Notes under the pieces: model-generated
What the model saw: only the letters and a program-made list of their open reading frames with translations
The model's database searches: none
Told to the model about the DNA's origin: nothing
Program-made: the position numbers and the translations under genes
NCBI GenBank assembly: GCA_964058845.1
Contig: CAXKVR010000233.1
Location: 186,001-250,000, forward strand
DNA: 64,000 bases
Direction: 5' to 3'
Source of the DNA: Carex sylvatica
Taxonomy: Eukaryota; Streptophyta; Magnoliopsida; Poales; Cyperaceae
Shown: positions 2,946-27,724 of the stretch, piece after piece
How positions within the stretch are numbered: the stretch's first letter is position 1
How the letters are laid out: every line of letters begins with the position of its first letter

Positions 2946-3617
2946 GTAATAGATTTTGGAGTCATTATCACAACGACTGAAGTAACACCGTTGTCTTAAT
3001 AGTTGAACTTCTGGGCTTGATGTGTGAATTAAAAAAACGTAACTATTTAATGAATCTAGGCATAACCTTGAAAAGGATGCTTTCTTAAGCTTTTTATAAT
3101 GGGGTAATTCAGAGCAAGCATTCGATTGAAGAGCTGAGAAAATTTTATGTCTTTTTATATCAAATTTGCGCTTATACTTTTCCTTACATATCTCTCCAGT
3201 AAATGACAGCTGCTAATAAGAAAAGACAGAGAATTTATACTGCAATAAAATATTTAAACTTTGAATTTATTAGCAGATGCCAAGAGTGAAAAAACGGTTT
3301 CTTTTATGAGAGCCCAATAAACTGCAATAAAATCGGTTTTGAAAAGATTTAATTCTCTGCTTTTGAGAAAGATTATTTAATTTCATAGACTTAACGAAGT
3401 TATTTGAGATATTAACGGTCTAGATTCGAAAATAATCCATACAAAAGTCTTACATGAACCAAAATATGTATTTTGGAAAACTGGCAATTCAAGGCCCATA
3501 ATCCAAAGCCCAATAGTTAAGTTTGGATGTAAACATATCGTGGTTCATACAAAAAAGCGGAAATTGAAAACCCATAATTTCCTTGTAAACAATGTTCTTT
3601 CCTTAATTTGGATGTTT

Positions 3618-4197
3618 ATATTGGTCCGTTGGACAAGAGTGGAACAGAGGAATAGAGTAGAAAATATGTTATATTTCCTCCACATGTAGAAAACACTCAT
3701 TTAGGCCAATTAATCGACCATTTAGTTGTTGGTAGTGATCAAATCATCAATGATTTTTCAGATTAATAATCGAATGGTTATTTCCAAATATTGACGATTA
3801 TTCCCGATTATTCCTAATTAATTGCTTGGCGGTACCTTATCCGTCCGATGATTGCATACCGTTATTTACAATACTGCGCGGAACAAGAGAAGAAGTGAGT
3901 GGAATTGAGAAATTGAGAATAGTGGAATTGACTTCGAACTTCTGTAGTCAAACCCATGCTTTTTGTAGTTTGATCCCTTCCATATTCCTCTTTGTGAATC
4001 AATTTCCTATTCCATGAAAAAGGTGGACTAGAGGAATTGATTTTTTTCAAGAGATTAATTTAGCTCGTTTGCCAATACTCTTCCACTATTCTACCATTAA
4101 CCGAATACGACCGAAACACTAAAAAATTGAAGCCTATTTCAAATTATAGTTTTCCTCACTATTCTTCTATTCCAATAGTTTACCGGCGAACGGGCCC
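3618..4197. repeat. MITE with a nested hAT-type MITE
   Basis: The outer ends are tggtccgttggacaagag on the left and the related inverted cggcgaacgggcc on the right. Nested inside, about 3690-3880, is a copy of the hAT-type MITE that is complete at 47108-47301 (shared catttaggcc-type start, Cgattattcc internal repeats and the end taccgttatttacaatactg). The left end of the nested copy is eroded. A second, partial copy of the same arrangement occurs at 8347-8690. Confidence 0.5.
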
Positions 4198-14305: not shown

Positions 14306-14884
14306 TCATGCAACCCTCAAATCTTTGGTCTCATTGATTTGGTTTCGTGCCTCAAGTTTATAGAACTTAAGAGTGTATTCCTCCACACTTTTTGCACCTT
14401 GAGAGAGAGATTGAAATTGTTGAAAAAGTATTTTTCGGTAGTTAAGAGGGAGAAACTCACGGTTCATTTCACACTTCAAATCAAGCCAATCAGTGAGAGG
14501 TGGAAGGCTGTCGAGATAGCGGCGATACTTGAATGATTGCCACCATGCTGCTGCTCTATCTCGGAACCGTATTGTCACCAACGGCACTTGTTTGTCCAAA
14601 GGGATTTCTTTGAGCTCGAAAACTTCTTCAACTTTGTTCGTCCAGTCAAAATACTCTTCAGGATTTAAATGACCCAAAAAATCTGGAATTTCAACTCGTA
14701 GGCCTACATCCCACTTTGATTCTCGATTTTGCGGGCACTTATCATTGTTATTATGTGGATTTTGTGGATTGTTTGGATTGTTGATTGGAACAAGGCGTTT
14801 CACAAGATTAGTGATGAGTTGCATAGTTTCGACATGATTTTGTTGCATACGATCTACAACAGTAAGAAGTTTAGGGTCGGCCAT
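14306..14884 (-). pseudogene. Ty3/gypsy gag fragment
   Basis: The reading frame from the methionine at 14884 (MADPKLLTVVDRMQQNH) carries a Retrotrans_gag type core: VEIPDFLGHLNPEEYFDWTN, DRAAAWWQSFK, FLPLNYRKILFQQFQSLSQG and VEEYTLKFYKLEARN. It ends after about 190 residues without a zinc knuckle, and no protease or polymerase follows. A chromovirus-like gypsy origin is suggested by the gag pattern. Upstream, the frame reads straight through the primer-binding site, so the longer open frame to 15055 is not protein. Confidence 0.75.
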
Positions 14885-14998
14885 GAGGTTTGTGATGCTT
14901 GTAATAGGGGAAATAGTGTGGGTTTTGTCGATGGAGGTGAATTTGGTGGTTGTCGAAGATACAACTTCATGCAAGTGCGAAGGTGGTTGTTGAACCTG

Positions 14999-15011
14999 GC
15001 TCTGATACCAA
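14999..15011 (-). other. Primer-binding site of the gypsy fragment
   Basis: On the minus strand the sequence tggtatcagagcc is the 3'-end complement of plant initiator tRNA-Met, as in many LTR retrotransposons. It lies about 115 bp upstream of the gag start. The expected LTR end next to it, and the region to 15370, are degenerate. Confidence 0.6.
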
Positions 15012-15620
15012 TTGATGCAAAGCAGTCCTGATACTGTCTTGCCCGATAAGCTCAACTACTCAGTTTTATGGTAAAAGAGAAGAATAAAGAGTTATACCAC
15101 TTGACATAAGGCGGTCCCCATACGATATTACCCGTTAAGCTCACGTACCGGTTTAGTAGTAATAGAAAATAAAAGACAAAACACTCAAGTCAAAAGTTAA
15201 ACACACAATAAACTTTCTATTCAATAATCAATGCCCCCTTCATCCAACAGCGGCCATGAAGTTGGTGATGTTTGTTGAATATATATATCCTTGATTCGCT
15301 TGAATTTGTTGTGGCCATCATCTACATCCAAATCTGAATCGATTATGTCTTCGATACGTACTGCATCATTGTAGCATGATGATCACAGCCATGCCACTCC
15401 CTAGCCTTGCCGTGGCCACAATCGCACTAGGGAAGTCGGGCCCACCTGTCAGGATGAAGCCCTAGTTCATATCAAGGTGGTGCGACCATTGAAGCAGTCC
15501 GTATCGTTCAGATCTTGGTGCGGTTGAGAATATTTGAAAGATGCACGAATCATGAAGAAGAGTTTAAATTGAAGCATCAGATTGAGGCCCAACAACACCT
15601 GACAATACGGGTCCCCTTTG

Positions 15621-16812
15621 TCAGTGTTCAAAACCATGGTTCCGGAAATCGGCCGATTCTGAGTCAACTCGGAATCGGACGGGACCAGGCCGAGTTTTAC
15701 CCGAGTCTTGCGCCTGTGCGAGTTTCTCAGCAAAACTCGGATGAACAGTGCTTGACTCGGTTGAGTCAAGCCGAGTTACACTGAGTTGATCCGATTCCAG
15801 CCGAGTCACTCTAACCTGGACCGAGTCGGCTGTGCTGTTGTAGGTCGAGCAATCAGCGCTATCGGAGGCTCCAGTGTGCTGTCGAGCAATCATAGGTCGA
15901 GCAATCGGTGCTGTCGTTGGTCGAGCAATCGGTGCTGTCGTTGGTCGAGCAATCGGTGCTGTCGTTGGTCGAGCAATCGGCTGTGCTGTGCTATCCATTC
16001 GATTTTAATCGGTGCTGTCCATTCTATTTCAATCGGCGCAGAAATTTTAGTTGGCGCAGGAGTCTGAGTCCCATTCGATTATAATGGGAGAAGGAAATGA
16101 GAAAGGGGTCATTTCGGTGGGGTCAGCTGATCAGTGAAGTAGAAGAGAGAATTTAAGATGGGGGTGGGGCCATCTGTCATAGAATTAGAAGGGAGGAGTA
16201 AATCAAGGAATCGTGTCATCTTTGGTGCCATATATAAGACTCTGAATTAAATATTATGTATCCAATTGTTTCATTGAACCGTTAATTCTATTCATTTTAA
16301 TAAAACGTTAATTAGAAATTTTCATTCTAAGCTAATTTGTTAGCTATTTGTTTCATTAGATTCGAAAGTTCTATTTATAATTACATTTTTGTTTTCTATT
16401 GACATGTTTCGATTTTAATTAATCAAATTTATTTTACACCACTTTTGTATAAAGTTGAAATATTTTTAACAATTGTTTTTAATTAATGATCGATGTTGTA
16501 CGTTGAGTTTAATCCAGGCAGCTCGGTATAGCTTCTGGCAATAAAAGTGTGTTATATTTGTAATGTTTGTAATACATTATATAATTATTAGATTATTTGA
16601 GTATAATATTTTATCTTAATTAACATAGTTTTTTTACAAATTATTTTTTATCAATTGTTTTTCTATTTTTTGGCTACAAAACAGGTTTCTGCAAAAAAAA
16701 TATGAGTTACCGATCCGATTCTTCCGATTCCGGCCGATTCATCCGATTGTGATTCCACGGTCAAAAATCCGATTCCGATTCCGATTCCAGTTCTGAGTTT
16801 CAGAACCATGTT
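15621..16812. mobile_element. Probable non-autonomous DNA transposon, about 1.19 kb
   Basis: This insert is absent from the proximal duplicate (near 5560). It begins cagtgttcaaaaccatgg and ends ccatgttcaaaacctac; both ends hold the same words in partly inverted order, followed by related ccgattccg / cggccgatt blocks. The cagtgtt start recalls hAT ends. I could not find a clean target duplication, so class and exact ends are uncertain. It contains GC-rich gccgagtcactc-like repeats, a 24 bp tandem array and an AT-rich core, and no credible ORF. Confidence 0.5.
15893..15990. repeat. 24 bp tandem repeat, about four units
   Basis: The unit ggtcgagcaatcggtgctgt plus cgtt is repeated in register three times with a fourth partial unit that diverges into ctgtgctgt. 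On the minus strand it gives an ARPTTAPI repeat in an open frame, which is a by-product of the 24 bp period. It is confined to the insert described above. Confidence 0.85.
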
Positions 16813-18465: not shown

Positions 18466-18685
18466 TCATTCTCTGCATGAGAGCCATCTAGACTGGTAAT
18501 AGCATGCGGTTGACTTATTTAAATAGTGTAGGCTTCCAGCAGAAGCAGAGAACTTATTTTTTTCATATTGCTGGTTTTGTTGAACGCATCATTGAAGTAC
18601 ACATAAAAGGTCTCCATTTGTCTGCACTGATTAACAAGTACCTCATGTACTGTCTTGGGAACATCTGCTGGGTGAAGGCATGCCT

Positions 18686-19032
18686 TGTTGGAAATTTCTG
18701 AAGGATACAACAATAGAGAGAACAAATTTGCTGCTGAAATTTAACTTCTATTGCTTCCTTAATTCGGATACAAAGTACATCTCAATTTATAGCTAAACAT
18801 TAATCTAAATCTAGAACATCTAAATTTAGCACCCCACTATCTATCCTCCTATTACAAGCTGTCCCCAAAATAGAATTATTCCTCACGTATCCTGTTATTA
18901 CAAACAAAACCTACATGACTAATTATAGAACCCACTAACTCAACTACATGCCTAAAAATACATCACAACACGTTGCATCCAGATCTCTAAATCTGAAATA
19001 TTCAGATTCTAATTTTGTATCAATATTCAACA
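18686..19032 (-). repeat. 3' LTR of the exon-7 element
   Basis: 347 bp, starting tgttggaaat and ending attcaaca on the plus strand. It differs from the other LTR by one base near 18955 (aaaaat here, aaaact there). The last 13 bp are read by the element's own ORF, whose stop codon (tga) lies inside the LTR. Confidence 0.93.
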
Positions 19033-21158
19033 CTCCCCCTTGATACAAAATTGCCAACTCCATGCACCGATCGAAATTGTTCAAATTTGCTTCGTGCCAA
19101 TGCCTTCGTAAGCACGTCTGCTACCTGCTTGTCTGAATTGACATATCTGATCTCAACGTCACCATTTGTCACAAGGTCACGAATGAGATGAACACTTATG
19201 TCAATATGCTTGGTCCTTTCATGAACTTCTGGATTTTGCGCCATTGGTATTGCTGATTGGTTGTCACATAATATCACTGTAGGCTGTTGCTGTTCCTGCT
19301 CAAAATCAGCAAGTATACGCCTCAGCGAAACTGCTTGACATGCCGCTGAACTGACTGCTAAATATTCTGCCTCAGAGGTTGACAATGCTACAGTTGCTTG
19401 CTTTGAACTTTCACCAACCTTGACAATTACCTTCTCTTGCTTGATAACAGTATCTTCTGTGATCATCTTTTTCAAAATATCTCCCTTAATACTTTTCATC
19501 TCCAGAAAACCTCTTCCATTTCCAAAGGAATCAGACACTTGACTTGGCATGTCACCTCCTCTTTCCATGATTACCTCTGCTTGGGTTAACAGGTCTGGAG
19601 TCAATCCACTACCATCTAGTGCTGGAATTCTTACTTCTCTCTTCTTATCAATATTCCTTCCTTTTGTAAACTCTTCTTTTTCATCTCCCTCTCCTATCTT
19701 TTCTTCTATGGGCTCTTCTTCTTCTTCGACTACATGATCTTCCTCCTCCGTGATTGTAGGCTCTTGCTCAGGATTGACTTCTACAATATGTAGTCTCATC
19801 AAGGAAAGTCTCTTTTCTTCTTTCTCTGCCTCCATCTGTACAGGCTGGTCGAAACATGATTCTGCCATCCTCAGCACTTGTGTATTAGTAATGGTAACCA
19901 GATCCCCATCAGAATCCTTGTACTTGATCAGCACAGATTTTAATGAAGGAAAAATCTTTGTCACAATATCTCTCAACACCTTGAAACTACATTTTTCTGG
20001 CATTTGAGCCAGCCGTATATCATGGTTATACACCAGCTTCAACGACCTCTGACGATTGAGCCCTAGATTCTCCACCTTGAGGGCTTTTTCATCAAACAAA
20101 ATATTTCTACTCACCATGATTTTGCCACTTCCTGGACTGCTGCCACCATTTTCTTTTGTATGCACTCCTACTGTGCTTTTGCTGCTTGCATCAATCTTGT
20201 CAATTGCGCTGCTGGCCATGAAGAGAGTTGGTTGCGCATCCTCCTCTTCTGTATAATTTGCTTGACTCTCTTCTCTTTGCTTCTTCTTGTAGCAATCAGC
20301 CTGCACATGGCCGATTCTATGACAATAATAGCACTCCACGTCTTGACCTTCTTCTCTCTGTTTCTTGTAGCAATCGGCTTGCATATGCCCTCTCTTGTGA
20401 CAGTAGTAGCATTCTACATCTTTCTTCGGTTGATTAGAGTGCGGTTGACTGTAACTTGGATTGCCTCTGCCTCTATCGCCTTGACTGCTTCGACCTCTGC
20501 TGTTACGTTGGCCTCTACCTCTGCCTGTGTTGCCTCTTGTGAGGAAAGCCTTAGAATCGTCCTTCTCTTCAGATCTGAGAAGTCGTACTTCATGGACTTG
20601 TAGCGAACCCATCAACTCGTCGAAAGAGTATGTGGACAGGTCCTTGGACTCTTCGATTGCTGCCATAACATGGTCGAATTTTGAGGTAAGGCTGCGGAGT
20701 ACCTTCATAACCACGATCTTTTCTGTGATATCTTCGCCACAACTCTTGATTTGGTTGACGGTGGATGTAACTCTTGTGAGAAATGTTTGAACAGATTCGC
20801 CTTGATTCATGTCCAACGTCTCAAACTCTCTTCTCAAGCCTTGTAGCTTTATCTCGCGGACTTTCGAACTTCCCTGGAATGCAGTTTTCAGGGTTGTCCA
20901 GGCCTCCTTTGCCGATGCTGCTGCTGCTATTTTTGTGAACACCGTGTCAACAACGGCTTGTTGAATGAAGAACAACGCCTTCGCATCTCGCTTCGCTGTT
21001 TCTGCTGGTGTGGGATCTATGCCTGGTGCTCCCGTCTCCACCAATTCCCATAGACCTTGCGACTTGAGCAAAGTTCGTATCTTGATGCTCCAGAACTCAT
21101 AATTGTCTCCCTTGAACAACGGAATCGACGGATTCGAAACGCTCATGTTTTCTGCCAT
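19020..21158 (-). CDS. Chimeric gag - PB1 - RNase H polyprotein, 712 aa
   Basis: Residues 1-200 are a copia gag (UBN2 type: FKGDNYEFWSIKI, EAWTTLKTAF, VMKVLRSL). An RG-rich stretch (209-233) precedes two CCHC knuckles, C250-C253-H258-C263 and C276-C279-H284-C289, which are near copies of one another. Residues 371-437 form a PB1 domain (SLKLVYNHDIRLAQ, then the acidic OPCA box YKDSDGDLVTI at 413-423). With the trailing HIVEVNPEQEP and Glu-rich tail it strongly resembles plant TPR-PB1 proteins of the CLMP1/PHOX group. Residues 500-580 are of unknown origin. Residues 581-712 are the C-terminal part of copia RNase H (STSEAEYLAV, LCDNQSA, HERTKHID, ADVLTKAL); the first catalytic Asp region (DADW) is missing, so nuclease activity is unlikely. 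One open frame with no stop or shift. The start Met follows the primer-binding site closely, as expected for gag. Confidence 0.9.
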   Translation of the reverse strand: MAENMSVSNPSIPLFKGDNYEFWSIKIRTLLKSQGLWELVETGAPGIDPTPAETAKRDAKALFFIQQAVVDTVFTKIAAAASAKEAWTTLKTAFQGSSKVREIKLQGLRREFETLDMNQGESVQTFLTRVTSTVNQIKSCGEDITEKIVVMKVLRSLTSKFDHVMAAIEESKDLSTYSFDELMGSLQVHEVRLLRSEEKDDSKAFLTRGNTGRGRGQRNSRGRSSQGDRGRGNPSYSQPHSNQPKKDVECYYCHKRGHMQADCYKKQREEGQDVECYYCHRIGHVQADCYKKKQREESQANYTEEEDAQPTLFMASSAIDKIDASSKSTVGVHTKENGGSSPGSGKIMVSRNILFDEKALKVENLGLNRQRSLKLVYNHDIRLAQMPEKCSFKVLRDIVTKIFPSLKSVLIKYKDSDGDLVTITNTQVLRMAESCFDQPVQMEAEKEEKRLSLMRLHIVEVNPEQEPTITEEEDHVVEEEEEPIEEKIGEGDEKEEFTKGRNIDKKREVRIPALDGSGLTPDLLTQAEVIMERGGDMPSQVSDSFGNGRGFLEMKSIKGDILKKMITEDTVIKQEKVIVKVGESSKQATVALSTSEAEYLAVSSAACQAVSLRRILADFEQEQQQPTVILCDNQSAIPMAQNPEVHERTKHIDISVHLIRDLVTNGDVEIRYVNSDKQVADVLTKALARSKFEQFRSVHGVGNFVSRGSVEY
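19033..19045 (-). other. Polypurine tract of the exon-7 element
   Basis: The minus strand reads caagggggag directly before the 3' LTR start tgttgaat. It also encodes the last residues of the chimeric ORF. Confidence 0.75.
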
Positions 21159-21188: not shown

Positions 21189-21201
21189 GGCTCTGATACC
21201 A
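21189..21201 (-). other. Primer-binding site of the exon-7 element
   Basis: The minus strand reads tggtatcagagcc, complementary to initiator tRNA-Met. In an ordinary element it would start 3 bp from the 5' LTR; here a 171 bp hairpin separates them and the first six bases (tggtat) are present on both sides. Confidence 0.85.
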
Positions 21202-21372
21202 TTTTGTTGGGATAAACTAAGCAATACTGCACTGCTTTGTGCCCGTATGCAAAGGATTGAAGAGAGAAAGGAAATAAAGCATTGTTTCTATTCAGAAAAA
21301 TATTCTTCTCTCTTCAATCCTTTGCATACGGGCACAAAGCAGTGCAGTATTGCTTAGTTTATCCCAACAAAA
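21202..21372. repeat. 171 bp perfect-arm hairpin inserted in the primer-binding site
   Basis: The left arm starts ttttgttgggataaac and the right arm ends gtttatcccaacaaaa. The arms match perfectly over 67 bp, with a 37 bp loop. The 6 bp atacca occurs on both sides (21196-21201 and 21373-21378). Inside the arms the sequence starts tgttggg and ends cccaaca, like copia LTR termini, so it may derive from the ends of a related LTR in inverted orientation or be a fold-back transposon. Confidence 0.85.
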
Positions 21373-21381
21373 ATACCAATT

Positions 21382-21728
21382 TGTTGGAAATTTCTGAAGG
21401 ATACAACAATAGAGAGAACAAATTTGCTGCTGAAATTTAACTTCTATTGCTTCCTTAATTCGGATACAAAGTACATCTCAATTTATAGCTAAACATTAAT
21501 CTAAATCTAGAACATCTAAATTTAGCACCCCACTATCTATCCTCCTATTACAAGCTGTCCCCAAAATAGAATTATTCCTCACGTATCCTGTTATTACAAA
21601 CAAAACCTACATGACTAATTATAGAACCCACTAACTCAACTACATGCCTAAAACTACATCACAACACGTTGCATCCAGATCTCTAAATCTGAAATATTCA
21701 GATTCTAATTTTGTATCAATATTCAACA
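21382..21728 (-). repeat. 5' LTR of the exon-7 element
   Basis: 347 bp partner of the LTR at 18686-19032. It is followed on the minus strand by aat and then the start of the primer-binding site, which is interrupted by a hairpin insert. Confidence 0.93.
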
Positions 21729-24179
21729 TGCCTGGTTTAGTCTCATCCATGCATCCTCGCAAAATGACTGGAACTTCGCAGTTGTTTCTTCATTTGTTAA
21801 TTTATGTTCGATTTTGTAGCACTCAAATGTTGTTGGCCCTTGCCCGGACTTAATCTCACGCTGCAAGCATCAAATGAAAACAAATTGTGAAGCTAGCTAG
21901 AACTATTACTCAGTAAAAACTTTAGTTTTTTTAATCAATGCATTCAATTTTTTTAATCAAAGCATCAAATAGCTTGATTTTTGTTCTTACCATAAATCAT
22001 GAATCCCTTTTCGGGATTCATAAATATTTGATCTGAGGTAGATGATGAGTGCGTTCCCATGAGACTATATATATTTATGTCTAATTTGACTAGAGCAATT
22101 GAGTCTGAAATATTAAAAGCAATACATAACCAAACAACAAAATGGAAATCTATTTCCTACTCTTCCCCAGTTGCTCGTCGTATGCCAAATGACTTTTCAA
22201 TTTATAGCACACCAAATCAATTACTAAATCAACTTTAATACAATTAGGTCATTTTGGTACCTCATGAGTTATTACATCGTCGATGTATCTAACAATTCTC
22301 ATGCAATCCACGGTGACATCTGGGAAAGTATAGAGCCACTGAAAGGCCTCTTTGGTGATGACTTCCCCTGGAATTCCGAAAAAAGGAGTACCAATCACGA
22401 TGAAGCTAACCTGTTCGTCTAATGCGGGTTTTTTGCGCTCATGGAAGGATGGTACATGCCCACTCACACGCCACTCCACTTCTTTCATGTAAGCGTCAAT
22501 AAGTGTCTGAGCCTATTTATATAAATGTAAAATGCATTACAACTTTAAAATCCAGAAAATAAGATATATATTTGAAAAGTCAGGATGAAAATAATTATCA
22601 AACAGAAAGTATACATATTAATGAGGAGGTATTGAGTTTAAAAAATTAACACATCTGTATTCTGCACTCTAAAAATTTTAAACTTGATATGTTACTTATA
22701 ATTATTAGTAATCCACATAAATAAAAAATATAAATATGCAGAGTTCGCCATAATGAGAAAAACATGGTATCATACCGACTTGATAATGTACGGCATACGG
22801 TATTTCTCACTAGGTTCTAATTCATCCTCAAAACTATTAACTGTCTGAATGAATTGGTGACATAAGTTCCTCAAGTACATCGGTAGTAAATCCACTGCCT
22901 TTTCATCCCACCTGCAAGCAAATGATCCCAGTACTGACATTAGTTTCACTAAATATATATAATGTTATTAATAAAAAATTACGCAAGTTAATTATTAATT
23001 TCGTTAGTTAATAATTCCGCAAGTTAATTATGAAGTATTTCCAAAGAAAACTTATGATGACACCTCTCAGACCATTAGTTTCACTAATAACAAAAACTTA
23101 TGATGACAAATGTCCAGCCTTATCTTAAATATATATAATGTTATTTTATATTTATAAAATAAAACATATAAATTTTTTACTTAACGGAAAAACAAACATT
23201 GGATTTTTTTTCTCCATTTTCACAAATTTATATGAAGATTTATCGCCTGTTCATTTTGGGTTATCAAAATTTTCTTCTAGCACATGCTACTTAGCAATAA
23301 ATATATAACAATTGGGGATATTATTCTTAGTCATTTTTCATCATAAAGAAACTGTGCAATTTGAAATATTCCGTTAATCATAAAGGAAGGACTGTAGATT
23401 CTCTTTCTTACATATCCCACTGTCTGTTAGTTCCAATAATAACAACTTTTCATACGGATGATATTATGTTTATCAATTAATTGCAGATGTGATTCTCATC
23501 TTCATCCCGATTTAAATCTGATCCTTTCAAGTTCTAACTTTGGTTTAGGTCTGAGAGATCCTTTAAAAGAAAATTTTGGTTACCATTATAATTTCACCTA
23601 CTACTGATAGAATACATTCCGCTAGAGTCATTTCAACGATATGTTTCTGTTAGAATATCACCACTGGACGACAATATATATAGTACTCAGATTACAGTTC
23701 ATTAATTTTAACTAATAAAGAAAACATATAACAGGTAAAATATCTATATAACTTGCCTCTGTATTGCCTCATTTAGAATCTTGCATTCTTCATATGTGCC
23801 GTACACATCAAAAGTGTCATCCACAACTGCCATCAATGCATACAACTTGGCAATCATTTTTCGTGCACGGCTATACTGATCGACCTCAAAATATTGTCCC
23901 CAACTCCAAATGATATATACCTCTAATAAACGCTCCCGTGCATATTTTAGATTCTCGCCAATATTTAGGTTCTTCCACCATCTGCAACATGTATATAACC
24001 ATATCTGTATTAATAATCTATGTTCACTAATAGGTGTTGAAACTTTTAGTGAAGCTGTTAAGTAATAATGAAATTAAACACTATATATTTAACTAAGAAA
24101 ATATATTTGGTTGTATCGACGCTTATTAAGTACGTAGGTTTACACTGTAAAGACACTATGGACTTATATATATAGGGAT

Positions 24180-24640
24180 TACACAGTCAATTCAAACTGT
24201 TCAACATGATGGATATGTTAAAATGTGTTTGCAGATCAAATTTTTTATTTTTTTACTATTTATTAAGATGGGTACAAAAATGTAATGGTCTGAATATAGC
24301 GATTTTGTTAAATACTTAGGGTGCATTTGGATGAAACAAAGAATACCTCGAAATAGCTGCTAACCTAACATTTCAATGGAATAGCGGAATAGCAGCTAAC
24401 TCGAGCTATTCTTTATGTTGAGAATAGCATTTTTTTCACCCAAACGTGAAATAGTGAGAATAGCTCGCTAGGAATAGTAGCTATTCCTAGGTTAGAGCTA
24501 TTCGTGTGTCACCCAAACGTACCCTTAATAAATAGTAAAGAAATTCGAAAAGATGTAAAATTTGATCTGCAAGCACATTTTAATATATACATTATGTTGA
24601 ACGGTTTGGATTGACTATTTGAACTTTGAAAACTTTGAAA
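24180..24640. repeat. Fold-back MITE in TPS intron 3, split by another MITE
   Basis: The left half (about 24183-24320, ttcaaactgttcaacatg to tactatttattaag) is the reverse complement of the right half (about 24525-24640). It belongs to the same fold-back group as the elements at 24774 and 25234. A Tourist-like MITE has inserted next to its centre. It is followed by a (TG)n(TA)n microsatellite at about 24700-24773. Confidence 0.6.
24319..24525. mobile_element. Tourist-like MITE nested in the fold-back MITE
   Basis: The ends are gggtgcatttggatg on the left and its related inverse cacccaaacgtaccc on the right, with the 3 bp tta on both sides. The interior repeats agaatagc / gctattc words. No ORF. 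It is of the same general type as the element at 5793-6031. Confidence 0.7.
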
Positions 24641-24738
24641 ATTGATAATGTAATTCGGTGTCACCAAAAACGGTGTAATTGGATCCCTCCTCATATATAT
24701 ATATGTGTGTGTGTGTGTGTGTATGTGTATAGATAGAT

Positions 24739-24773
<35 letters not shown>

Positions 24774-24776
<3 letters not shown>

Positions 24777-25198
24777 GTTGGGTACTATGCTTATATAAGC
24801 ATATCCCCACATATGCTTATAACTCATTTTTGTGTTTCCAATGTCCAAATGGTCGATCTGAACCGTTCATCTTGTTCTCCATATTAATATGTGCTTGGAA
24901 ACTAAATTTTACATTTTTCTGAATTTGTTTACTATTTATTAAGCCACTTTGAAAATTATTAATCCAACGGTGGCTGCTGATTTTACTGTTTTGTGCAGCC
25001 ACCGTTGGATCAGCGATTTTCAAAGTGGCTTAATAAATAGTAAAAAAATTCAGAAAAATGTAAAATTTAGTTTCCAAGCACATATTAATATGGAGAACAA
25101 GATGAACGGTTCAGATCGACCATTTGGACATTGGAAACACAAAAATGAGTTATAAGCATATGTGGGGATATGCTTATATAAGCATAGTAGCCAACCTC
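24774..25198. repeat. Fold-back MITE in TPS intron 3
   Basis: A 425 bp near-perfect palindrome. It opens gaggttgggtactatgc and closes gcatagtagccaacctc. The core carries ttctccatattaatatgtgc and the tccaacggtggc hairpin centre shared with the element at 1100-1516. Both ends touch TA/GA microsatellites. Confidence 0.8.
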
Positions 25199-25233
<35 letters not shown>

Positions 25234-25237
<4 letters not shown>

Positions 25238-25650
25238 GTTGGCTAATGTCAGAACGTTTGTTCTGTAGCCGTGGTGCAACCAATTAGTTTTTCATTTTTT
25301 AAAGTCCAAACAGTCGATCCAAACCATTAGATTTGATCTCTATATTAATATGTGCTTGGAGACAAAAGTTTTTTATTTTTTGGAATTTTTTTACTAATTA
25401 TTAAATCAGTTTTAAAATTGTTGATTTTAATAAACAGTGAAATTTTTTGTGAATCATTGAAAACACCGATTTTAAAACTGACTTAATAAATAGTAAAAAA
25501 TAAAAAAAATATAAAAATTGGTCTCCAAGTATATTTTAATATAGATTGAATATTGAACAGTTTAGATCGACTGTTTGGACTTGAAAAATGTAAACACCAA
25601 AGCATTTGTTATATGGTCTAGAAACAAATGTTTTGATATTAGCCAACATC
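25234..25650. repeat. Fold-back MITE in TPS intron 3, third copy
   Basis: Opens gaggttggctaatgtcag and closes gatattagccaacatc; arms pair through attaatatgtgcttggag-type sequence with more mismatches than its neighbour, so it is older. It is separated from the previous copy by (TA)n(GA)n and followed by (CT)n. Confidence 0.75.
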
Positions 25651-27724
25651 TCTCTCTCTCTCTCTTTATATATATACAGACACACACATATTCATATATA
25701 TACGCATGCATTTATTGGTAGGTCTGATTTGTGAAGTTTGATCTAAAGTAATTTTCTGCTTAAATATATGCATCTAGTTTAAAACCGTGGCTAAGGAAAT
25801 GTCTAATTCCGTGGGTAAGTCCACGGATATAGTTATCCCAAATTCCCCGTTGGTAAGCAATTATTTCCATGGTGATAAAACAGATTCTAGTCTACTCCAT
25901 ATTGAATAGTATTACAAGGATCATATATTTAACTCACAGAGAAAGCGTCTTCATCTCTTCTAAATGAAGAGCTTGGCACGTATTAAAGTCCAATTTTGCA
26001 AGCTCAAGTAATCTTTCATTTCGGGTTTCCTCCTCATCATATTCTTCAATATAAAACCTTGCCGCCACTCTCACCAGCATCTTATGCAACGGCACCTTGA
26101 GTGCGCGCAATACTTGTTTCTTTAGTGGGGATATCAAATCATCAAGCATTAATGAGAGATGGCCCCTAGCAAATGAAATTGCATCAACAAGTATTTCCTC
26201 ACCAGGAGTAGCAAGATACCCTGCATTATACAGGCTTAGCAATCCTTCCGGGTCCTTGCTTATATTCTCATCAAAGTTTCCTTGATCATCTTTGAAATTG
26301 AGAAATACATCTGTTAATGTTTAAACACAGTACATAGTCAGCTTAAGCGATTAATTAAATGTCTGGAGATAGAGGCGGAGCCACATGAGTCCAATATGTA
26401 ACAATTCCCTCCCACTCCTAACTACGTCTCCAGATACAACTTCATAAACAAAAAAACTCATTAAACAAGTGGCAACTATATATGCTTTAAAAACTAAAAC
26501 ATTATTGTAAGAAAATGTATTCAGGAGTTCATCTATTTAAGATAAGTTGTTTTCTGAAAAGGCTGTTATGAAACTAAAGTTGATACGAAAGATGACTTCA
26601 GATGAAATTAATTGTATATTACCTGAAGACACGTTAAACCCGTGTTGCCTGAGTAGTCGGAAGCGAGTTGCCACATGATGAAGATCACAATTAACTAGTT
26701 TAGCATCATGAAGATGGCTTAATGCATCATAAATGTCCATCTTAAAGTGGTAACCTATGCCAAGGTGTTCAATTGTATCAATTAAGTTCACCATCTCTAC
26801 ACTGTCAATGGTGGACCCAAGCATTGCTCTAACTTCCCCTTTTAGGTCCCTTACCCTTGCTTCGATCCACTCTTTGGGCTTCTGCAAAACCAAATGTGCT
26901 GTATTAATTACACTCGTCTTGTACAAATAAGAGCTTTGTGAAAACTATTCAAAAAATTTGCCTTGGGTAATTTAGTACTGTTCCAATTGTAAACAGGAAA
27001 TAAAACTGGCGTGGAAAATCTAAAAATGTCTTTCATTGTTGACCAACTATATATAGATTATGGAGTATGTCCAATGCTCATCAGACCTACTTTAGGTTCA
27101 ATGGGCTCCATGACCTTCTTGAAAACCAAGGAATTTTTGTGTGCATGGATCTTAAAGCAGATAAGACCGTTCAGGAGCACATTAGACCCAAAAGTAGGTA
27201 TTTTGTCCATCAGACCTACTCCATTCTCCTATATATTGTTTGCCATTAATCTTGGATATTTTAAATACAATTTAAGCACTCTTTTCATTACTTTTGAAAT
27301 TTACAACAGTTATTGATAATAAAGAAATTTTAAATCAGTTAAATATGTGGAGTATAACTACTCTCTGTTTATTATGAAACAACCAGTATATACAAGGCTG
27401 AAGGCACCCAACAGCAAACTATAACTTAGGAGATGATTTTCATGGGAAAATATAGAGATTAATGTATGGCGTATACCTGAATAGGGGCTGTGTGAGTAAT
27501 GAAAGTGTCAGGACTCCACGCAGTTGGTTCATAGTTAAAAAACCTGCGTGCAAAACCCTCCTGCTTCTCACTGTTGCAAACAGCGGGGCATGTTTTCTGT
27601 GCTTCACTATTCATCTTCCAACCTAGCTATATCAAGAGAATTTGTTTATTTTCTAAGCTTCACTATTGTAACGATGGATCCTTAACCCTTTTCTTTCCTT
27701 GGGCAAAACACATTGCAAGTATTC

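What the first reader, a model, noticed from the sequence alone, without database searches (positions are those of the whole stretch)
19020..21158. Retrotransposon ORF that fuses gag, a captured plant PB1 domain and RNase H
A single 712-codon frame passes from copia gag through two zinc knuckles into a PB1 domain (residues 371-437, with the OPCA acidic box at 413-423) and on into the C-terminal part of RNase H. The PB1 and its Glu-rich tail look like those of the TPR-PB1 proteins CLMP1/PHOX. Protease, integrase and RT are replaced. PB1 domains assemble into heteromers and filaments, so it could change particle assembly or bind host partners. Open frame and near-identical LTRs mean that the fusion was the form that moved.
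Basis: partly seen in the sequence, partly recalled or inferred. Interest (0 to 1): 0.9.

Follow-up and report, generated by a model that had tools for sequence, protein, structure and literature searches.

The report
Sedge retrotransposon carrying two host-gene fragments
In a sedge genome a small jumping element joined its coat protein to pieces of two plant genes, one of them an assembly (PB1) domain, and this hybrid multiplied, although nothing yet shows that the plant piece helps it to move.

Summary
In detail: a 712-codon frame on the MINUS strand (19020-21158) runs from copia gag through a PB1 domain into the C-terminal part of RNase H, between 347-bp LTRs that differ at one base. The PB1 came from a host TPR-PB1 (CLMP1-type) gene: it groups with sedge CLMP1 proteins, 82% identical to the Carex one. 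The held 64-Mb genome has at least 18 PB1-bearing copies; 12 of the 13 whose LTR ends were mapped have exact 5-bp target duplications, all different, so the hybrid itself moved. Gag and U3 differ between copies while the captured block stays alike. That PB1 changes assembly is not supported: shared variants show constraint on gag (ratio 0.30) but none on the captured block (0.92); PB1 alone is inconclusive (0.62). Best reading: a non-autonomous gag-bearing copia family (TR-GAG-like) carrying host fragments, as maize Bs1 does, probably moved by full copia elements. The window copy probably cannot move now: a 171-bp inverted repeat separates its LTR from the primer-binding site.

The parts
18681..18685 (.). 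target-site duplication TGCCT, left copy
   Evidence: read; same pattern
18686..19032 (-). 3' LTR (element orientation)
   Evidence: 347 bp, one mismatch to the other LTR
19033..19046 (-). polypurine tract GTATCAAGGGGGAG
   Evidence: identical in 9 of 9 copies with window-type LTR pairs
19020..21158 (-). 712-codon fused ORF, gag to RNase H C-terminal part
   Evidence: Pfam
20181..21158 (-). gag with two CCHC zinc knuckles (residues 1-326)
   Evidence: against copia relatives
20088..20180 (-). linker (327-357) with scraps like the protease region and the integrase C-terminus
19749..20087 (-). captured CLMP1-type segment (358-470) with the PB1 domain (371-458)
   Evidence: 82% to Carex littledalei P0003 281-393; Pfam
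19623..19748 (-). Glu-rich tail and linker (471-512); the Glu-rich part resembles CLMP1 by eye, the rest is unassigned
   Evidence: side-by-side print
19410..19622 (-). second captured segment (513-583), like the tail of a sedge plant-mobile-domain protein
   Evidence: 71% to P0122 567-645, 69% to P0123 568-632
19020..19409 (-). C-terminal part of RNase H (584-712), without the upstream part
   Evidence: 67% to L059, whose frame also has the upstream SDSDWAG stretch
21189..21201 (-). displaced primer-binding site TGGTATCAGAGCC
   Evidence: next to the LTR in 8 of 9 copies, not here
21202..21372 (.). 171-bp inverted-repeat insertion (MITE-like, 67-bp arms), flanked by ATACCA on both sides
   Evidence: not in the leader of the 16 other copies whose leader matched; L017's leader did not match
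21382..21728 (-). 5' LTR (element orientation)
21729..21733 (.). target-site duplication TGCCT, right copy
   Evidence: read

Best explanation
This is one copy of a non-autonomous copia LTR retrotransposon family of a sedge. Its ancestor lost most of protease, integrase and reverse transcriptase and gained, in frame behind gag, a piece of the host CLMP1 gene (PB1 plus acidic tail) and a piece of a plant-mobile-domain gene, ending in the C-terminal part of RNase H. Shown: the anatomy, one common origin of the PB1 in the copies placed in a tree, many separate insertions, and different gag and U3 types joined to one captured block. Inferred: the capture and exchanges arose by template switching when different RNAs were packaged together; the family moves on RT, integrase and protease supplied by full copia elements; and the host segments are mainly passengers, with PB1 not yet shown to do anything.
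For: Anatomy. At least 18 PB1-bearing copies in 64 Mb: 18 of 21 PB1 matches; the other 3 were not listed by the ORF search (counts are lower bounds). Exact 5-bp TSDs, all different, in 12 of 13 copies with mapped LTR ends, the 13th with one mismatch. 6 of 18 copies keep one frame from gag start to RNase H end. One PB1 clade (support 0.997; six copies and P0001) that groups with sedge CLMP1 (0.805; sedges plus Juncus 0.998). A full copia relative with identical 314-nt LTRs and RT-RNase H in the same genome (domains by eye). L029 has a gag 91-92% like four gag loci without PB1 (L034, L036, L037, L038) and mostly 79-82% like other PB1 copies, yet its PB1 segment is 94-97% like theirs. At least three U3 types share one R-U5. 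Shared variants: gag 20 N to 32 S against 33.5 to 16.0 expected (0 of 1000 shuffles); captured block 35 N to 17 S against 34.8 to 15.6.
Against: PB1 key residues are kept: K374, D415 and D417 in 18 of 18, D419 in 17 of 18, and the PB1 core ratio (0.62, P 0.116) is distinguishable neither from neutrality nor from gag (Fisher P 0.21). Singletons, expected to be near neutral, are also constrained in gag (0.48) and low in the second captured segment (0.37, P 0.01; one of many tests), so the test is not clean; constraint on gag may partly be inherited from full elements by recombination. LTRs of the one full element examined (C100) are only about 72% like this family over 102 nt, so the helper is not identified. 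Capture through RNA is not shown; no host gene DNA was available.
Confidence: 0.7

Rival explanations
1. The PB1 is functional in the element: Gag-PB1 joins gag particles and uses head-to-tail PB1 contacts to strengthen assembly, or binds host PB1 proteins (for example to escape selective autophagy).
For: Basic and acidic PB1 residues kept in nearly all copies; the fused block is present in at least 12 separate insertions; 6 of 18 copies are open throughout; the block is kept on different gag and U3 backgrounds.
Against: Shared variants in the captured block look neutral (0.92), unlike gag (Fisher P 0.006, or 0.007 with the same 13 copies); three of 42 nearly invariant CLMP1 sites changed in the element; C194 carries a truncated PB1, and C510 matches over the same stretch.
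Confidence: 0.15
2. The fusion was taken over as a host gene, as C. rostrata LOC144546091 (P0001) is annotated.
For: An annotated 663-aa gag-PB1 protein in Carex rostrata.
Against: The own-genome copies are dispersed LTR insertions with TSDs and many decaying frames; no selection signal in the captured block. P0001 itself was seen only as a protein.
Confidence: 0.05
3. The copies arose by segmental duplication, not transposition.
For: High identity of the captured parts between copies (PB1 segment 94-100%, second segment 93-100%).
Against: Distinct exact TSDs in 12 of 13 copies with mapped LTR ends.
Confidence: 0.01
4. The PB1-like segment belongs to retrotransposons in general and not to a host gene.
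For: None found; P0001 is the only one of the 120 listed hits (of 318) with gag domains.
Against: The other 119 listed hits show no gag domain, and the named ones are mostly CLMP1 or PB1-TPR proteins; the element clade groups with sedge CLMP1.
Confidence: 0.01

Closest known systems
Maize Bs1 LTR retroelement (as described in passages of PMC8616336, PMC13317346, PMC7264820)
   Same: LTR element whose gag is fused to fragments of several host genes; lacks a complete pol (the last point is recalled)
   Different: Other genes (ATPase, xylan endohydrolase, glucanase); here a PB1 domain, at least 18 copies in 64 Mb, and different gag and U3 types among copies
TR-GAG elements (Arabidopsis AT5TE33540, passages of PMC8704663)
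   Same: Two LTRs and one gag ORF, related to full copia elements; transposition seen in ddm1
   Different: The passages read speak of a single ORF coding for GAG; here host fragments and an RNase H part are fused behind gag
MUSTANG-B genes MUG7/MUG8 (passage of PMC8616336)
   Same: PB1 domain acquired by a transposon lineage
   Different: A Mutator-derived gene family with PB1 in an extra 5' exon; not an LTR element and not gag
BARE-2/Wis-2 and Veju chimeras (passage of PMC13317346)
   Same: Chimeric LTR elements attributed to template switching
   Different: No host protein domain fused to gag in the passages read
CLMP1 (TPR-PB1 host protein)
   Same: 82% identity over 113 residues to the Carex littledalei protein, which its source calls Protein unc-45
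   Different: TPR parts absent; gag in front

Membership tests
LTR retrotransposon | two LTRs with TG..CA ends, TSD, PPT | tested here: met
LTR retrotransposon | primer-binding site next to the 5' LTR (family level) | tested here: met
   8 of 9 copies with window-type LTR pairs; in the window copy it is displaced by the 171-bp insertion
Copia superfamily | copia-type gag and copia RNase H | tested here: met
   PF14223 E 4.6e-32; RNase H part 67% to a full copia relative
Copia superfamily | integrase before reverse transcriptase in pol | tested here: inconclusive
   pol is almost wholly missing here; in relatives L034, L037 and L059 the order fits by eye, no profile search was run on them
TR-GAG-like non-autonomous element | gag ORF between LTRs, no complete pol, full relatives in the genome | tested here: met
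TR-GAG-like non-autonomous element | moved by proteins of another element | not testable with these tools
   inferred from the absence of RT and integrase
PB1 domain | profile match over the curated cut-off | tested here: met
   47.2 bits against 23.6
PB1 domain | basic Lys in strand 1 and OPCA acidic motif | tested here: met
   K374, D415, D417, D419; assignment of these residues to the two faces is from recall
PB1 domain | similarity to solved PB1 chains | tested here: inconclusive
   by sequence the ten matches with E up to 1 are PB1-bearing proteins (names; recalled that they carry PB1), best E 0.018, none at 0.001
PB1 domain | ubiquitin-like PB1 fold | tested here: inconclusive
CLMP1 origin of the PB1 | groups with CLMP1 proteins of the host's own lineage | tested here: met
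   element clade 0.997; with sedge proteins 0.805; with sedges and Juncus 0.998; place within the sedges poorly supported (0.000-0.764)
CLMP1 origin of the PB1 | capture limits match exon borders | not testable with these tools
   host gene not found in the held 64 Mb
Bs1-type host-gene transduction | gag fused in frame to fragments of more than one host gene | tested here: met
   whether the plant-mobile-domain donor is an ordinary host gene or itself transposon-borne is open

The most novel reading that the evidence does not exclude
A retroelement that took a host polymerising domain and put it behind its coat protein, so that PB1-PB1 contacts or binding to host PB1 proteins help the fused Gag enter particles made by full elements; the PB1 block was then handed between gag and promoter backgrounds as a module.
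Probability: 0.13. Interest if true: 0.82.

Novelty: new variant of a known kind. Interest (0 to 1): 0.52.

Why it matters
[quoted passage not shown] Here a doubly captured, in-frame hybrid went on to multiply, with gag, U3 and the captured block behaving as separate modules. The copies allow a direct test of whether a captured host domain is a passenger or a working part; the present answer leans to passenger.

Tried and rejected
Fold comparison: two AlphaFold models of the PB1 segment were of low confidence and the searches gave no clear match. Sequence search of solved structures gave only weak matches, best E 0.018. Not used for or against.

Donor genes in the own genome: a search with P0003 found only element copies. 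A search with P0122 found the element copies plus weak matches (E 1.7e-7 or weaker) at its residues 100-191. So no exon borders and no host nucleotide divergence.

Species: not settled. A host PB1 gene (L002) is closest among named hits to Rhynchospora tenuis at 89%, and 95-98% to unnamed or metagenome proteins over 81-88% of it; a sedge is inferred.

Literature: searches (PB1 domain with retrotransposon and gag terms) listed 1, 2 and 4 papers. Of these only PMC8616336 was opened (passages; PB1 in MUSTANG genes); the others were seen as listings only. A search for Carex copia non-autonomous elements gave one paper on Eleocharis, listing only. No paper held joins CLMP1, PB1 and chloroplast. The Bs1 paper PMC2899935 is not held, so Bs1 is described from reviews.

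Rejected: segmental duplication (distinct TSDs), and a general retroelement origin of the PB1 (grouping with sedge CLMP1).

Full report
The frame. The 712-codon frame lies on the minus strand. Pfam finds copia gag (28-197) and PB1 (371-458) over their cut-offs; zf-CCHC stays just under its own, but two CCHC patterns can be read. LTRs of 347 bp differ at one base and are flanked by TGCCT. At the commonly used rice rate of 1.3e-8 per site and year (recalled), one difference means roughly 0.1 million years.

Origin of the parts. A full copia relative stands in the same genome (C100, loci L034 and L059; identical 314-nt LTRs; gag through RT and RNase H, domains named by eye). Against it and its kin L037, residues 1-326 are gag, about 331-338 a scrap of the protease region, 340-358 a scrap of the integrase C-terminus, and 584-712 the C-terminal part of RNase H without the upstream part. 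Between these lie two foreign pieces. Residues 357-469 are 82% identical to a Carex littledalei TPR-PB1 protein (P0003, named unc-45 by its source; other hits of the family are named CLMP1), 81% to Rhynchospora tenuis, 80% to a metagenome protein and 70% to Juncus. By E-value a cotton protein with two PB1 copies (P0002) ranks above P0003, but its identity is 64-65%. Residues 514-590 are 71% identical to the tail of a Carex rostrata plant-mobile-domain protein, and 515-577 69% to a second such protein. A FastTree tree of about 110 residues puts six own-genome copies and C. rostrata P0001 in one clade (0.997), with the sedge proteins (0.805) and with sedges plus Juncus (0.998); the place within the sedges is poorly supported (0.000-0.764). 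One capture from a sedge CLMP1 explains the copies placed there.

Copies. PF00564 gave 21 matches in the 64-Mb genome; 18 are this element, and 3 were not listed by the ORF search; one of the 3, L002, matches other plant PB1 proteins. The tool scores only the best candidates, so counts are lower bounds. One copy cut by a contig end (L033) and two with a truncated PB1 (C194 and C510, which match over the same stretch) were left out of the counts below, as were duplicate loci of one copy (L026, L028 and others). Nine copies have complete LTR pairs of the window type: TSD exact in 8, one mismatch in the ninth, PBS next to the LTR in 8 of 9, PPT the same in 9 of 9, and 0-9 LTR differences in 331-346 compared sites. 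Four more with other U3 types have exact TSDs (read). So 12 of the 13 copies with mapped LTR ends, of 18, have exact TSDs, all different. Six of 18 keep one frame from the gag start to the RNase H end.

Mosaic structure. Among the 18 copies PB1 segments are 94-100% alike and second segments 93-100%, but gag falls into several types. L029 carries a gag 91-92% like L034, L036, L037 and L038, which showed no PB1, and mostly 79-82% like the other PB1 copies (68% over the partial L025; L017 not comparable); its PB1 segment is 94-97% like theirs. The zinc-knuckle part (216-326) of L009, L010, L011, L017 and L018 is 96-98% alike, 91-92% like two gag loci without PB1 (L030, L031), and 76-87% like the other PB1 copies. 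LTRs share the last 131-154 bp (R-U5) but have at least three U3 types. This fits exchange during reverse transcription of co-packaged RNAs, as reviewed for other plant elements (passages of PMC13317346), but the mechanism is inferred.

Selection. The idea that amino-acid variants become rarer among shared variants when a gene matters is from the abstract of PMC9073684 (abstract and one section seen); my version places each variant at random on sites of the same context. Gag (first 215 residues, 13 copies of the main type): 20 N and 32 S shared variants, 33.5 and 16.0 expected, ratio 0.30, 0 of 1000 shuffles as low. Captured block (327-582, 18 copies): 35 N and 17 S, 34.8 and 15.6 expected, ratio 0.92, P 0.38. 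Difference: Fisher P 0.006 (0.007 with the same 13 copies). PB1 core: 13 N and 10 S, ratio 0.62, P 0.116, not different from gag (P 0.21). Among shared variants the second captured segment gave 1.43 and RNase H 0.60 (P 0.09). Against a clean reading: singletons are constrained too in gag (0.48) and low in the second segment (0.37, P 0.01, one of many tests), and part of the gag signal may come from full elements by exchange. So the block as a whole looks unconstrained and PB1 alone is undecided. Between host and element, the commonest element residue differs from all five sedge CLMP1 proteins at 10 of 102 compared sites: 3 of 42 nearly invariant, 2 of 26 fairly conserved and 5 of 34 variable ones, no clear bias.

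This copy. A 171-bp inverted repeat (67-bp arms) lies between the 5' LTR and the primer-binding site, flanked by ATACCA on both sides. It is not in the leader of the 16 other copies whose leader matched (L017's did not match), and similar sequence lies beside L023. It probably landed after the element did and is expected to stop this copy from priming normally.

Comparison with the known. Maize Bs1 (gag with three host fragments), TR-GAG elements (one seen to move in Arabidopsis ddm1) and the PB1 of MUSTANG-B genes are the precedents, all seen only as passages. None of the passages describes gag-PB1, and searches listed no paper that appears to.

Verdict. A real, multiplied hybrid element of a known general kind with an unusual cargo. 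The capture and the movement of the hybrid are well supported; a function of PB1 is not.

Noticed in passing
21202-21372: MITE-like 171-bp inverted repeat between 5' LTR and primer-binding site; 115 nt of similar sequence (97%) lies beside L023 at 3528-3642.
   Followed up: partly
L034 and L059 (G000:C100): Full-length copia relative with identical LTRs (314 nt) and an open 1372-aa frame.
   Followed up: partly
L037 and L061 (G000:C233:276080-279457): Copia element with gag and integrase but most of RT missing (by eye); its last 160 nt of LTR are 99% those of the window element.
   Followed up: partly
L060 (G000:C194): Derivative in which a protease-like piece (by eye) precedes the zinc knuckles and the PB1 is cut short and joined to the RNase H end.
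   Followed up: partly
P0121 (Carex rostrata): Annotated receptor-like kinase model that begins with the same plant-mobile-domain tail as P0001; possibly an element sequence taken into a gene model.
   Followed up: no
20270-20422: The zinc-knuckle unit is duplicated in tandem (75 nt, 73%); L034 and L037 align with only one knuckle there.
   Followed up: no
24185-25676: Dense nest of inverted repeats (arms up to 220 nt, 97% complementary).
   Followed up: no
15890-15980: Short tandem repeat with 24-bp period.
   Followed up: no
14306-15055: Minus-strand ORF of 249 aa that looks like a gypsy-type gag (by eye, recalled motif, no profile search).
   Followed up: no
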